Made by a program: the position numbers and the translations under genes. 64,000 nt of DNA from Thermococcus sp. (lineage in GTDB: Archaea; Methanobacteriota_B; Thermococci; Thermococcales; Thermococcaceae), in NCBI RefSeq assembly GCF_026988555.1, contig NZ_JALSLB010000015.1, positions 1 to 64,000 of the forward strand, given 5' to 3'. The first letter of the stretch is position 1. Each line of letters opens with the position of its first letter. Shown here piece after piece: positions 7,225 through 11,709 of this stretch. The notes beneath the pieces are model-generated. The model did not search any database, had not been told where the DNA came from, and saw nothing but the letters and a program-made list of their open reading frames with translations.

Positions 7225-7576
7225 GTTTGGCCCTCCCAACTTTGTAGAGTACGAGACCAAGGATTGATAATGTTGCCCCAAAAACGAAGAGGCTCAGGAT
7301 CGATGAATAACCACTTATGATGGCAATGCCAAGGCCGCTCGAAAGGCCCAGCCAGCCGTTTAATTCGTGGTCGTTTTTAAAGCCATGGCCGAGCCCCAGG
7401 AGCAGCGCCCCAACAGCGACCAGCCCGAGCTCAATGATGAAGATGGGCGTGTTTATCCCCGTATAGACCTCTCCACTCGGCACTTTCATGCAGGCCAGCC
7501 GTTCAATGGGCGGCTCTGCTATGCCTAGGCTTATGCCGAGGAGATAAACCATCAGCCCGGCCAATTTCTTACTCAT
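7211..7576 (-). CDS. Small membrane protein of unknown function
   Basis: 121 residues with about four hydrophobic segments (near 6-20, 45-62, 74-90 and 93-110) and short loops. The loop after the first segment carries [12 protein letters not shown] do not recognise a family. The start at 7576 overlaps the stop of the Xre regulator gene (GATGAGTAA), with GGGTGATAGGG just before it; the end overlaps the ATPase gene. Its place between a regulator and an ABC exporter suggests an accessory or sensing role, but that is inference only. Confidence 0.7.
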
Positions 7577-7775
7577 CCCTATCACCCTCGTAAAGGAATA
7601 CGTCCTCGATTTTAACGCCGAAAAAGCGCGCTATCCTAAAAGCTAATCTCAGCGATGGGTCGTATTTACCCTTCTCAATCGCTATCACCGTCTGCCTCGT
7701 TACCCCTAGGGCCTTCGCCAGTTCCTCCTGGGTTAAGCCTTTGGCCTCCCTTAGCTCTCGCAGGCGATTTTTCAT
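7569..7775 (-). CDS. Small Xre-family helix-turn-helix regulator
   Basis: A 68-residue protein that is almost only a Cro/C1-type DNA-binding domain: [15 protein letters not shown], then [20 protein letters not shown], typical of the short YvaO/YgzD-type regulators often found with membrane proteins. It lacks any sensor domain, so a signal would have to come from another protein. The start is ATG 7775, with GGGAGGATG nearby that also encodes the end of the preceding DUF2178 gene. It lies sixth in the operon and is the obvious candidate to bind the twin palindromes at 9817-9848. Confidence 0.9.
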
Positions 7776-7779
7776 AGGC

Positions 7780-8079
7780 TCACATCCTCCCGGCATAATA
7801 GGCTCTGAAGATGAGGTTGCCTAGGAATATGGTAGCGAATATCAGGACGGCGAGGTTGGTGCACCGCTCGTCCCTGAGAACCAGCCACGAGTAGTAGAGC
7901 GCCGCCACTGTGACGAGAAGGACGAGCTCCAGGGTTCTCGCCGCTGAGAGTTTGGCTATCTCGAAGGCCCTCTCGTCTGGGGGAAGACCGATATCCCTCA
8001 CTATCGTCCGGGTCATGAAATGGCCCAGGAGTCCGCCTCCAACAATGGCAACCAACGAGACTAAGATGAGTTCGTTCAT
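7780..8079 (-). CDS. DUF2178-type membrane protein, fifth of five tandem paralogues
   Basis: 99 residues, about three to four hydrophobic segments. It shares with the four upstream genes a central [20 protein letters not shown] segment (the DER...I...SA motif) and a C-terminal YYAGRM tail. It is the shortest copy and seems to lack part of the first membrane hairpin. The stop TGA of the upstream paralogue directly abuts its ATG, and the sequence coding for that paralogue's RRRM tail provides its AGGAGG ribosome binding site. Function unknown. Confidence 0.75.
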
Positions 8080-8691
8080 TCACATCCTCCTCCTGTAGTA
8101 GATCCCAGCCCCGATCATCGAGAGGCTCCAAGTTAACATGAATAAAATGGAGAGCGTTTCAGAGCTCGGGTTCCACAGGTGGAAGAGGCTCACCAACAGA
8201 ACTATTGAGGCAACGAACGTCATGTTCCTGCCGACCATTGCCCAGGACTTGAGCTCTATCAGCTCAACCCTCTCATCCGTGAGGGGTTCCTCTGGAGTTA
8301 ATGTGGCCCTTTTTACCCGGAGGATAAGCGCCCAAGACACCACTACAACCAGGACAAGAAGCGCGCCGGGAGTTCTTTTCAGATACCCCGTCATGATGAA
8401 AGCCCCTATAGCCGAGGTTGTTCCCAGTAGAATTCCCAGGGACAACAGTTGCAGGATCACCTCTCTTTTCTCGACCATCTCTGAGCCGGTAATCGTCAGA
8501 AGTCCCCACCCACCGATGAACGCTATCCCAAAGACGAGGACGCCAACGAGGAGCGGAAACGTCCACTCCGGAGGGTTGGAGCTTACCACCATCGTTCCGC
8601 CACTTGCTTCATAAAGCCAGGCAAGATAAAGGACATACACCAGGGCAAAGACAAGTAGAAGACCGAGCACGTTTCGCTTCCAGCGCTCCAT
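8080..8691 (-). CDS. DUF2178-type membrane protein, enlarged fourth paralogue
   Basis: 203 residues, nearly twice the size of its neighbours. The C-terminal 90 residues contain the shared LTDERVELIELKSWAM segment flanked by membrane helices and end in YYRRRM like the others. The N-terminal 110 residues add about three more hydrophobic segments and look like a separate membrane domain (WGLLTITGSEM between helices). It starts directly after the TGA of the previous gene. I see no catalytic motif. Confidence 0.72.
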   Translation of the reverse strand: MERWKRNVLGLLLVFALVYVLYLAWLYEASGGTMVVSSNPPEWTFPLLVGVLVFGIAFIGGWGLLTITGSEMVEKREVILQLLSLGILLGTTSAIGAFIMTGYLKRTPGALLVLVVVVSWALILRVKRATLTPEEPLTDERVELIELKSWAMVGRNMTFVASIVLLVSLFHLWNPSSETLSILFMLTWSLSMIGAGIYYRRRM

Positions 8692-9060
8692 TCACATCAC
8701 CCGCTCATAATGCGCCTTCAGGACTGCCGCGGCCAGGACACCCGCTAACATCGACAACAGGAGCCACTTTGAAAGCAGAACCACAGTTTCATAGTCATGG
8801 CCAGCGAGCCAGATCAGTTCGTAGCCAAGAACGACGAAACCGACTCCCATGCCTTGGTAAAAACTCTTCATGGTTATCAGCTCGGTCCTTTCGTCTCTGA
8901 GGGGCCCTACTTTCTTCTCGTAGGTCTTCGCAAGGACCCAGGTTCCGAGCCAGACGAGGGTGAAGAAGAACCAGCTTAGGTATGTGCTGGTTCGCGAGTA
9001 ATAACTCACCAGGAAAATTGTCGTGAACAGAAAGACGAAGTGAATGACCCCGAACCTCAC
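8692..9060 (-). CDS. DUF2178-type membrane protein, third paralogue
   Basis: 122 residues with two N-terminal hydrophobic segments, the cytoplasmic-looking loop LRDERTELITMKSFYQG, then two more segments and the tail HYERVM. The start is GTG (9058-9060), placed immediately after the TGA stop of the upstream copy; the upstream copy's final CGG GTG ATG codons give the ribosome binding site. Family function is unknown. Its four helices, central charged loop and operon position are the only clues. Confidence 0.75.
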   Translation of the reverse strand: MRFGVIHFVFLFTTIFLVSYYSRTSTYLSWFFFTLVWLGTWVLAKTYEKKVGPLRDERTELITMKSFYQGMGVGFVVLGYELIWLAGHDYETVVLLSKWLLLSMLAGVLAAAVLKAHYERVM

Positions 9061-9423
9061 TCACATCACCCGCTTGTAATGATAGTGAGAAATCAGGGGC
9101 ACGGCCGCACCAAGGGCGAGGGGAATTATAAGCTTCGTAGCCACCTCGACGTTCTCCTTGTTGTACTCCCATAGATATTCAGCGAAGAGGAAAAAGCTCA
9201 TCACAGCATAGCCGTTCCTCGCGCTCTTCGCACTTATGAGCCTGCTCCTCTCATCCTCAATCCTCTCAACCTTTGAGTCGTAGTACCAAGCCAGCAGATA
9301 GCTTAGCAAAAAGCCCGCGACAAAAATTCCCACAGCCAGAAGGGCTTTTCCGGACTTTGTTGAGTAAGCCAGCCCGATTATCATGCCCGTGATGAGAATC
9401 CCGAGCAGGCCTTCGTACTTCAT
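9061..9423 (-). CDS. DUF2178-type membrane protein, second paralogue
   Basis: 120 residues, four hydrophobic segments, with IEDERSRLISAKSARNG between segments two and three and the tail HYHYKRVM. It begins with ATG directly at the stop of the first operon gene. The DER...S/ISAKSA motif is the best-conserved segment of DUF2178 (a family described only as a predicted membrane protein), and this copy matches it most closely among the five. Confidence 0.78.
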   Translation of the reverse strand: MKYEGLLGILITGMIIGLAYSTKSGKALLAVGIFVAGFLLSYLLAWYYDSKVERIEDERSRLISAKSARNGYAVMSFFLFAEYLWEYNKENVEVATKLIIPLALGAAVPLISHYHYKRVM

Positions 9424-9816
9424 TCACATCACCCTCAAGTAGTAGTGTTTCAGCGCGACCTTTAGAACCGAGACGAGAACCATCAGGGCAAGGGAGAGGT
9501 AGTAGGCGCTCCTCAGCTCCGGGCAGCTCTGGGAAAGTACCGCCAGACCCACCACGCTGAAAGCGAGGACGAGCACCAAAACCTGAAGCGTCCTTCTTGA
9601 TGCCATCTCCTCAATGCGGAGCGTTCTCTCATCGTTTATAATCTCACCGCGCCTCTTAACCCACTCGGAATATAAGAAGGTCGTGGCAATTGCCCCAGCC
9701 AGAACCCCAAAGGCGAGTGCGGCGTTTCCCATCCAGAGGGCCACGGCCAACAGCGATGCGGTCGTGGCCGGAATCGCATATCCAATTGCCTTCCATCCTT
9801 CCACATTCATCACCAT
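9424..9816 (-). CDS. DUF2178-type membrane protein, first gene of the operon
   Basis: 130 residues, four hydrophobic segments, central INDERTLRIEEMASRRTLQ and tail HYYLRVM. ATG codons at 9816 and 9810 are both possible; the first directly abuts the operator (9817). With the TATA box CTTATAAG at 9852-9859, transcription should start near 9830, so the leader is only about 14-20 nt. This gene therefore receives its translation signal differently from the four paralogues behind it, which all use the preceding gene's end as ribosome binding site. Confidence 0.75.
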   Translation of the reverse strand: MVMNVEGWKAIGYAIPATTASLLAVALWMGNAALAFGVLAGAIATTFLYSEWVKRRGEIINDERTLRIEEMASRRTLQVLVLVLAFSVVGLAVLSQSCPELRSAYYLSLALMVLVSVLKVALKHYYLRVM

Positions 9817-9905: not shown

Positions 9906-9993
9906 GCGGGGGTAGCCGAGCCTGGCCAAAGGCGCGGGATTTAGGGTCCCGTCCCGCAGGGGTTCGCGGGTTCGAATCCCGTCCCCCGCACCA
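9906..9993 (+). tRNA. tRNA-Leu (anticodon UAG)
   Basis: A class II tRNA of 88 nt including encoded CCA. The acceptor stem GCGGGGG (9906-9912) pairs with CCCCCGC (9983-9989), followed by discriminator A and CCA. The anticodon stem CGGGA/TCCCG encloses the loop TTTAGGG, giving anticodon TAG (reads CUA). The long variable arm GTCCCGCAGGGG-type and the TTCGAAT T-loop confirm a leucine tRNA. No intron. Confidence 0.95.
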
Positions 9994-10591
9994 TACAAAC
10001 TTCGCCTTTGCGACGTTGAAGTGGAGCTTCAACGCACGGGATGATAGTCCCGTTGAGTTTGACCAAGACTCGTGATTCTTCTCTAAATGCACTTCTGTGA
10101 GGTTTGCACTTTCAAACGGCTATTTTCTCGGGGAAATTCTCTTTAGGGGGCTATTAAACGTGTTTTCTCTAAAAAGCGCTCCTTCGGAGCGCGTGAAAGT
10201 GTAAACCTAATGGCAACGGCTCTTAACTTGGAGAATTTCACACATCCAAGGGGCTATTGGAAGTGCAAACACTCACCAAAAAGCTCCCTATCACAGGAAT
10301 CACTAACTTTGATGAAACTTTGCTCAGCAAAGTTTCCTTGATGAATCTTTTCCCAAAAGCTTCAGCGCTGGCGGAAGGTTATGTGCTTCTTCTAAAGCAT
10401 TCATTTTTGAGCGGGTTTTTTCCTAACTTACCCCTTGGTGAGTGTTTCACGCTCTAAATGGCGTCCAAAGGACGCCTTCTTGAGTGAAACACTCTTCAAA
10501 AAGCACGTGAAAAAGGAACCAAACTCAAAATGGACACCTCTAGAATAATGAATCTTGTTTTCCGCCAGCGCTTTCGTCGGAAAGGGCTGTT
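9994..10591. repeat. Gene-free stretch with nested inverted repeats between tRNA-Leu and tRNA-Val
   Basis: About 600 bp without a credible gene; the base composition is more AT-rich than its surroundings. It holds many exact inverted repeats: hairpins GCGCTCC-TTC-GGAGCGC (10176-10192), GAAACTTTGCT-C-AGCAAAGTTTC (10314-10336) and GGCGTCC-AAA-GGACGCC (10460-10476); longer-range arms 10267-10277 with 10437-10447, 10440-10450 with 10484-10494, and 10364-10376 with 10559-10571; and a near match 10101-10114 with 10194-10207. The word GGCTATT also recurs three times. No integrase, transposase or tRNA fragment was seen. It may be a decayed element or a source of structured RNA. Confidence 0.6.
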
Positions 10592-10670
10592 ATGGTGGGC
10601 CCGCGGGGACTTGAACCCCGGACCTCCACCGTGTGAGGGTGGCGTCATAACCAGTCTAGACCACGGGCCC
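10592..10670 (-). tRNA. tRNA-Val (anticodon CAC)
   Basis: 79 nt including encoded CCA. Read on the minus strand, the acceptor stem GGGCCCG pairs with CGGGCCC, then A and CCA. The anticodon stem CCACC/GGTGG encloses CTCACAC, giving anticodon CAC (reads GUG). The T arm is GGGGTTCAAGTCCCC. A TATA-like CTTTATATT lies at about 10697-10706, 27 bp or more upstream of the 5' end, just beyond the stop of dph5, so the tRNA has its own promoter. Confidence 0.95.
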
Positions 10671-11513: not shown

Positions 11514-11709
11514 CGTCTCACCGGCGGAAGTTTCCCTTCCACCTTTTAAGATTACCCTCGCAGCGCATGCTAGTTTCATGTTGCCGTGTGAGCCCAGTGC
11601 CACCTTAACCCTCGCTGTGGGGTGAGAACCAGCTGTGAACCGGGTTTGCCTAACTTGCCTGGCTTTTTATGTGGAGAGCCGACCCAACGTTCATCAGAAA
11701 AGGCTGTTG

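What the first reader, a model, noticed from the sequence alone, without database searches (positions are those of the whole stretch)
9994..10591. 600-bp gene-free interval packed with nested exact inverted repeats between two tRNA genes
Three perfect hairpins with one- or three-base loops (10176-10192, 10314-10336, 10460-10476) and three long-range exact arms of 11-13 bp (10267-10277/10437-10447, 10440-10450/10484-10494, 10364-10376/10559-10571) are crowded into 400 bp. The surrounding genome is tightly coding, so this much structured non-coding DNA is exceptional. The nested arms could form cruciforms or a folded RNA. It might be a relic of an integrated element at a tRNA or an unknown structured RNA.
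Basis: seen in the sequence. Interest (0 to 1): 0.65.

Follow-up and report, generated by a model that had tools for sequence, protein, structure and literature searches.

The report
Palindromic repeat arrays behind tRNA genes
The hairpin-rich DNA between two tRNA genes is one copy of a widespread, apparently undescribed family of repeats that sits directly behind tRNA genes in heat-loving Thermococcus archaea and may be where their chromosomes break and rejoin.

Summary
The inverted repeats are real: four exact arms of 11 bp or more against 0.08 expected, 0 of 500 shuffles. The 599 bp fill the gap between two facing tRNA genes, Leu(TAG) and Val(CAC). They belong to a dispersed non-coding repeat family found in 70 of 94 Thermococcaceae genomes. 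Units start a few bases after the tRNA CCA, behind 14 of 38, 22 of 39, 17 of 39 and 18 of 38 terminal tRNA genes in four genomes. Each unit is a roughly 250-bp nested palindrome; stems keep pairing through compensatory change, without G-U preference and equally on both strands, so nothing points specifically to RNA. Arrays resemble other tRNAs' arrays in the same genome more often than the orthologous array. The window array joins a tRNA-Leu array to a tRNA-Val array; these loci lie 92 kb or more apart in 8 of 8 relatives. Facing tRNA pairs swap partners between species. Best reading: shared palindromic arrays act as recombination junctions at tRNA ends. How they spread is unknown.

The parts
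9906..9993 (+). tRNA-Leu(TAG) gene, CCA at its 3' end; anchor of the left half of the array
9995..10061 (+). left-end hairpin, 'type 1' with insert: CAAACT 9996-10001 closes with AGTTTG 10056-10061; inside are two inserted hairpins (GTTGAAG.../...CTTCAAC and ACGGGA/TCCCGT)
   Evidence: sequence; 14 of the 24 other copies aligned have the insert, the rest a short form
10056..10319 (+). unit A, nested palindrome: stems 10062-10078/10297-10313, 10102-10111/10261-10270, 10133-10141/10231-10239, 10162-10165/10203-10206
   Evidence: 68 related copies in alignment A1
10176..10192 (+). central GC-rich hairpin of unit A (GCGCTCC TTC GGAGCGC); other copies have GACGCCC/GGGCGTC instead
10314..10336 (+). 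linker hairpin GAAACTTTGCT C AGCAAAGTTTC
   Evidence: about 60-70% of 77 profile-aligned copies have letters here
10338..10363 (+). linker TTGATGAATCTTTTCCCAAAAGCTTC, a weakened form of a hairpin (GAAGCTTTT/AAAAGCTTC) seen in relatives
10364..10592 (.). unit B, two-headed palindrome: outer arms AGCGCTGGCGGAA 10364-10376 / 10560-10572, inner arms 10440-10450/10484-10494
   Evidence: B consensus
10460..10476 (.). central hairpin of unit B (GGCGTCC AAA GGACGCC)
10560..10591 (-). 'type 2' left end as read from tRNA-Val: AACAGCCCTTTCCGACGAAAGCGCTGGCGGAA
   Evidence: same start behind other tRNAs
10593..10670 (-). tRNA-Val(CAC) gene, 3' end facing the array; anchor of the right half

Best explanation
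The interval is a tRNA-anchored palindromic repeat array. A family of non-coding units (A and B, each roughly 250 bp, each a nested palindrome around a 7-bp GC-rich hairpin, joined by smaller hairpins) occupies the 3' flank of tRNA genes that end a transcription unit in Thermococcus. Shown by computation: the family, its anchoring a few bases after CCA, compensatory change in stems, switching of left-end types between orthologous tRNAs, excess similarity between arrays of different tRNAs in one genome, and that the window copy joins a tRNA-Leu(TAG)-type array to a tRNA-Val-type array where relatives have two distant loci. Inferred: the T-arm of the tRNA plus the array forms a stretch of shared sequence through which unlike tRNA loci recombine, by a pTN3-type integrase or by RadA. 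This would homogenise the arrays and create inversions whose ends lie between facing tRNA genes. The T-rich arms met from either side could also stop transcription; that is a side guess.
For: Family: 70 of 94 Thermococcaceae genomes; all 38 stretches found by an exact 25-base pattern in 84,980 species genomes are Thermococcaceae. Anchoring: arrays behind 14 of 38, 22 of 39, 17 of 39 and 18 of 38 terminal tRNAs; of 17 exact AGCGCTGGCGGAAG sites in four genomes, 13 lie within 1 kb downstream of a listed tRNA and 2 more follow an intron-bearing tRNA-Met that the tRNA list missed. Structure: 68 of 68 unit-A copies fold below z = -2 against local-composition shuffles on both strands; outer stem 90.5% paired, two-sided changes in 7 of 17 pairs. 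Exchange: the nearest relative of 57 arrays is in the same genome for 32, at the orthologous tRNA for 5; left-end types differ between orthologues. Junction: the closest copies of the A half (4 genomes, 86.7-87.6%) all follow tRNA-Leu(TAG); the closest copy of the B half (79.6% over 221 bp) lies in the array between tRNA-Val(CAC) and tRNA-Gly(TCC) of G034; the two loci are 92 kb or more apart in 8 of 8 relatives. Partner swaps: Val(CAC) faces Leu(TAG), Arg(CCG) or Gly(TCC); Thr(GGT) faces Pro(TGG) or Leu(CAA); Asp faces Lys or Trp. Downstream synteny against G033: 0 of 29 with arrays in both genomes (upstream 16 of 29) versus 14 of 29 with none. Cossu et al. 2017 (PMC5495485; Introduction, two Results sections and part 1 of the Discussion read, plus passages) put inversion ends in opposed tRNA pairs Leu/Thr and Leu/Gly and found too little similarity between such tRNAs for in vitro recombination.
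Against: Downstream synteny loss is absent in the close pair G001-G096 (11 of 16 with arrays versus 11 of 15 without). After dropping tRNAs that I judged operonic, the contrast is 0 of 29 versus 5 of 19 (Fisher 0.007, comparisons not independent), and p is 0.11 and 0.07 when each genome pair is taken alone. Arrays may simply sit where breaks are tolerated. G019, with no match to the family, still has a facing Leu(TAG)-Arg(CCG) pair 72 bp apart, and G001 has a facing Leu(TAA)-Arg(CCT) pair without arrays. A PF16795 integrase is present in G000 and G033 but not found in G001, G096 and G019. Arrays of different tRNAs are mostly well diverged, below the identical 104 bp that the integrase is reported to use. 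The window genome is a 68-contig draft; an assembly join inside the array cannot be excluded.
Confidence: 0.6

Rival explanations
1. A non-autonomous mobile element (MITE- or REP/BIME-like) that is moved by an enzyme in trans and inserts just 3' of small RNA genes; rearrangements are a by-product.
For: Start of units fixed a few bases after CCA behind unrelated tRNAs; also behind a putative small RNA gene; presence and type differ between orthologous tRNAs; similar copies at unrelated tRNAs of one genome.
Against: No Y1 transposase (PF01797) in G000, G001, G096 or G033; only 15 of 61 home-genus genomes have one, while 58 of 61 have the repeats. No larger copy with a transposase gene was seen. 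Shared tracts between copies run into the tRNA T-arm, which fits recombination rather than precise insertion. Target-site duplications were not tested.
Confidence: 0.2
2. Functional tRNA 3' flanks: bidirectional terminators or insulators that stop RNA polymerase leaving tRNA genes and entering from the other side; the palindromes are selected for that.
For: The tRNAs that read as having a co-transcribed gene behind them, such as Leu(CAG), Leu(TAA), Ser(TGA) and Pro(GGG), have no array. Left halves are T-rich and right halves A-rich on the tRNA sense strand (T 0.36 versus A 0.23 left; runs of 4 or more T 153 left, 46 right). More T4+ runs per 300 bp behind array tRNAs than behind array-free ones (4.5 versus 1.9).
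Against: About half of terminal tRNAs do without; T6+ runs are no more frequent (0.19 versus 0.19) and a first T5+ run within 60 bp is rarer (7 of 57 versus 13 of 59). Hundreds of base pairs exceed what a terminator needs.
Confidence: 0.15
3. A structured non-coding RNA made as the trailer of tRNA transcripts and released by tRNase Z.
For: Directly downstream of tRNA promoters; strong predicted fold; compensatory changes.
Against: Both strands fold equally well (sense more stable in 36 of 68); G-U pairs not in excess over A-C mismatches (509:431, shuffled control 2187:1738); no Rfam match; content changes quickly between orthologous tRNAs. The T. kodakarensis transcriptome paper (PMC4247193, 12 passages of a find) reports a tRNA-snoRNA co-transcript, but those passages mention no such trailer.
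Confidence: 0.05

Closest known systems
Chromosomal inversions at tRNA genes in Thermococcus (Cossu et al. 2017, PMC5495485; Introduction, two Results sections and part 1 of the Discussion read)
   Same: Ends lie between tRNA genes transcribed in opposite orientations; tRNA-Leu is a repeated participant; partners are unlike tRNAs.
   Different: The sections read do not mention repeat arrays; the authors found too little similarity between the unlike tRNAs. The arrays are a candidate for the missing shared sequence.
REP/BIME elements of bacteria with RAYT (Y1) transposases (recalled, no call)
   Same: Dispersed non-coding palindromes combined in modular clusters at ends of transcription units.
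   Different: Units are about ten times longer and nested; anchored to tRNA 3' ends; no Y1 transposase in the window genome.
MITEs (recalled, no call)
   Same: Short, non-coding, rich in inverted repeats, many copies.
   Different: No autonomous partner seen; variable interior with conserved symmetric motifs; copies joined in chains; duplications of target not shown.
Integrated plasmids and viruses of the pTN3/TKV type at tRNA genes
   Same: Use tRNA genes as integration sites; a PF16795 integrase is in G000 and G033; in G033 one array follows a tRNA 3' half near an integrase.
   Different: The array has no genes and is found behind many intact tRNAs.

Membership tests
REP/BIME with RAYT transposase | dispersed extragenic palindromes in modular clusters | tested here: met
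REP/BIME with RAYT transposase | units of roughly 20-40 nt (recalled) | tested here: not met
   units A and B are nested palindromes of about 250 nt
REP/BIME with RAYT transposase | Y1 (RAYT-like) transposase in the same genome | tested here: not met
   PF01797: none in G000, G001, G096, G033; in 15 of 61 home-genus genomes
MITE | inverted repeats and short non-coding body | tested here: met
MITE | target-site duplication at insertion points | not tested
   no pair of filled and empty sites was aligned base by base
MITE | related autonomous transposon | tested here: inconclusive
   no transposase gene was seen next to the arrays read, but no systematic search was made
CRISPR array | regularly spaced identical direct repeats | tested here: not met
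   direct repeats in the region are two-copy and imperfect
Known structured RNA (Rfam 15) | match at the family's gathering score | tested here: not met
   only tRNAs in the window; best in the interval far below gathering
Structured RNA in general | covarying stems with strand-specific G-U wobble | tested here: not met
   covariation yes, wobble bias no, no strand preference
Relic of an integrated element | remnant genes or att duplication around the interval | tested here: not met
   longest listed ORF wholly inside 66 codons; both flanking tRNAs intact; no match in plasmid or phage collections

The most novel reading that the evidence does not exclude
The arrays are dedicated chromosome hinges: a genus-wide family of palindromic repeats that parasitises or equips tRNA 3' ends, kept similar by exchange, and supplies the shared sequence through which Thermococcus chromosomes invert so often. 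That would answer the open question of why inversion ends lie between unlike tRNA genes.
Probability: 0.3. Interest if true: 0.85.

Novelty: new variant of a known kind. Interest (0 to 1): 0.7.

Why it matters
Thermococcus genomes are shuffled so fast that even related species are hard to align, although insertion sequences are rare in the genus (stated in PMC5495485). A repeat family behind roughly 40-55% of terminal tRNA genes gives that shuffling a concrete, testable substrate and would explain why facing tRNA pairs change partners. It also shows that much of the non-coding DNA beside tRNA genes in a model archaeal genus carries an apparently undescribed, conserved, palindromic architecture.

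Tried and rejected
Structured-RNA reading: RNAalifold on 68 copies finds only 11 pairs, because spacers do not align; individual folds share the topology. My first arm-complementarity measure was hardly above its local-composition control (0.695 versus 0.673); folding energies against the same kind of control are clearly lower, so I rely on the latter.

RAYT/REP mobilisation: rejected for lack of Y1 transposase. Viral origin: the single IMG/VR hit (L090) reads as a chance match inside coding sequence, without tRNA. Plasmids and phages: no match.

Rows dropped before counts: 77 unit-A copies became 74 (two near-duplicates and one short copy out) and 68 after I removed six entries that were the opposite strand of places already in the set. 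The set is biased: loci came from similarity to the window copy or from an exact pattern that contains the conserved right stem. For synteny, 5 non-terminal tRNAs per genome and tRNA-Met were left out, and one G033 region (rRNA-operon tRNA-Ala) of 25 was not fetched. In the own genome 8 of 46 tRNAs were left out, as non-terminal or at contig ends. The list of 'operonic' tRNAs removed was my own choice, made.

Literature: no paper describing these arrays was seen in the listings of nine searches of the open library; subscription papers and supplements were not searched. The review PMC8371274 was seen as passages only, PMC2718504 likewise.

Full report
WHAT IS THERE. The interval 9994-10592 fills the space between tRNA-Leu(TAG) (9906-9993, +) and tRNA-Val(CAC) (10593-10670, -), whose 3' ends face each other. 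Exact arms of 11 bp or more are about fifty times commoner than in shuffles, and the fold is 8.5 standard deviations below shuffles on either strand. There is no recognisable gene in it and no Rfam match at gathering score.

IT IS A REPEAT FAMILY. The window sequence matches 12 places in its own genome, itself included. With a 384-bp query for the left half, 70 of 94 Thermococcaceae genomes match: 58 of 61 of the home genus, and 3 of 3, 0 of 9, 6 of 13, 3 of 7 and 0 of 1 of five others. In a set of 61 genomes of wider kinship, matches stayed inside the home genus (36 of 37) and were absent from the 24 others. An exact 25-base pattern from the right stem hit 38 stretches among 84,980 species genomes, all Thermococcaceae. 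Plasmid and phage collections gave nothing. The genus names behind the G handles are not given; the titles say Thermococcus or Thermococcaceae.

ANATOMY. Two units recur. Unit A (10056-10319 here) is a nested palindrome: an outer stem GTGATTC/GAATCAC extended outward, then conserved short motif pairs separated by variable spacers, around a 7-bp hairpin GCGCTCC/GGAGCGC (or GACGCCC/GGGCGTC). Unit B has the same plan with other motifs: AGCGCTGGCGGAAG, GTGC, GGGTTT, GTTTCA, GGCGCCC and, for most of them, their mirror images. Smaller hairpins such as GAAACTTTGC/GCAAAGTTTC link the units. In the window, B is two-headed, ending in the same 13 bp on both sides. Directly after the tRNA CCA three kinds of left end occur: ACAAACTTCGCC..., AACAGCCCTTTC...GCGCTGGCGG and AGAAACTTTTGC.... 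Units are chained; between tRNA-Leu(GAG) and an intron-bearing tRNA-Met of G033 several fill about 1.8 kb.

STRUCTURE, AT WHICH LEVEL? The outer stem of A pairs in 90.5% of cells over 68 copies, with whole-block changes (GTGATTC/GAATCAC, GTGGTTC/GAACCAC, GTAGCTC/GAGCTAC) that keep pairing. All 68 copies fold below z = -2 against shuffles that keep composition in 20-nt blocks, on both strands alike (mean z -5.1 and -5.3; sense strand more stable in 36 of 68). G-U type pairs do not exceed A-C type mismatches beyond the shuffled control. So palindromy is kept, with no sign that it is kept for RNA rather than DNA. The copies were gathered by similarity, which favours conserved ends.

WHERE IT SITS. 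tRNA genes that end a transcription unit carry an array starting within 150 bp in 14 of 38 (own), 22 of 39 (G001), 17 of 39 (G096) and 18 of 38 cases (G033). Exact AGCGCTGGCGGAAG sites in four genomes number 17: 13 within 1 kb downstream of a listed tRNA, 2 behind an intron-bearing tRNA-Met visible in the sequence, 1 behind a tRNA 3' half near an integrase gene, and 1 behind a putative small RNA gene. A second putative small-RNA start is L042/L082; neither has an Rfam name.

TURNOVER. The same tRNA often carries an array in all three complete genomes, but its type changes: tRNA-Val(CAC) has type 1, 2 and 3 left ends in G001, G033 and G096. Of 57 arrays, the closest other array is in the same genome for 32 (27 of them at another isotype) and at the orthologous tRNA of another genome for 5; from the pair counts of that call the pools of possible partners are about 33% and 3%, so both are enriched. 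In nine close pairs that I chose the shared tract begins in the tRNA T-arm and, by my reading, ends at or just after a hairpin in eight; hairpins are dense, so this is weak.

REARRANGEMENT. The tRNA-Leu(TAG) and tRNA-Val neighbourhoods of the window are separate in 8 of 8 relatives, 92 kb to about 1 Mb apart. The A half is closest to the arrays behind tRNA-Leu(TAG) in four genomes (86.7-87.6%), the B half to the array between tRNA-Val(CAC) and tRNA-Gly(TCC) in G034 (79.6% over 221 bp). The window array therefore looks like a junction of two arrays. Facing tRNA pairs swap partners: Val(CAC) with Leu(TAG) here, Arg(CCG) in G001 and G096, Gly(TCC) in G034; Thr(GGT) with Pro(TGG) in several, Leu(CAA) in G033; Asp with Lys or Trp; three back-to-back pairs stay the same in G001, G096 and G033. 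Against the more distant G033, the gene beyond the array is conserved in 0 of 29 comparisons with arrays in both genomes while the gene upstream is in 16 of 29; without arrays the figures are 14 of 29 and 13 of 29. The contrast shrinks to 0 of 29 versus 5 of 19 without operonic tRNAs and is absent between the close genomes G001 and G096.

MEANING. Cossu et al. 2017 (PMC5495485; sections read) showed that inversions between two Thermococcus species end in opposed tRNA pairs of unlike type, and that the pTN3 integrase recombines similar DNA of about 100 bp, but found the unlike tRNAs too different to recombine. The arrays are shared DNA at just such places. That they are the substrate is an inference. 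The window genome has one integrase of the PF16795 family and G033 three; none was found in G001, G096 and G019. G019 lacks the family and still has one facing tRNA pair.

VERDICT. A real, widespread, apparently undescribed family of tRNA-anchored palindromic arrays. Its presence, anchoring and turnover are shown; its role as recombination hinge is likely but not proven; how it spreads is unknown.

Noticed in passing
window 8080-9816 (-): Run of small membrane-protein genes next to an HTH_3 regulator (7569-7796); two are DUF2178 (PF09946), two more look similar but have no Pfam match.
   Followed up: partly
window about 11680-11709 (-): tRNA-Gly(TCC) is followed by a short, degraded type 2 left end (CAACAGCCTTTTCTGATGAACG), as if an array had been lost.
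   Followed up: no
L149, minus strand about 1890-1820; L037; L042 and L082: Two putative small RNA genes, conserved between genomes and followed directly by an array; no Rfam family.
   Followed up: partly
L150, minus strand about 1600-1550; L250: A tRNA 3' half followed by an array lies near a PF16795 integrase gene in G033, as at the end of an integrated element.
   Followed up: no
G000 contigs C22, C30, C44, C45: Several contigs of the window's draft genome end within a few hundred bases of a tRNA gene, as expected if arrays break short-read assembly.
   Followed up: no
L165 (G019): In a genome without matches to the family, tRNA-Leu(TAG) and tRNA-Arg(CCG) face each other 72 bp apart, possibly an old arrangement.
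   Followed up: no
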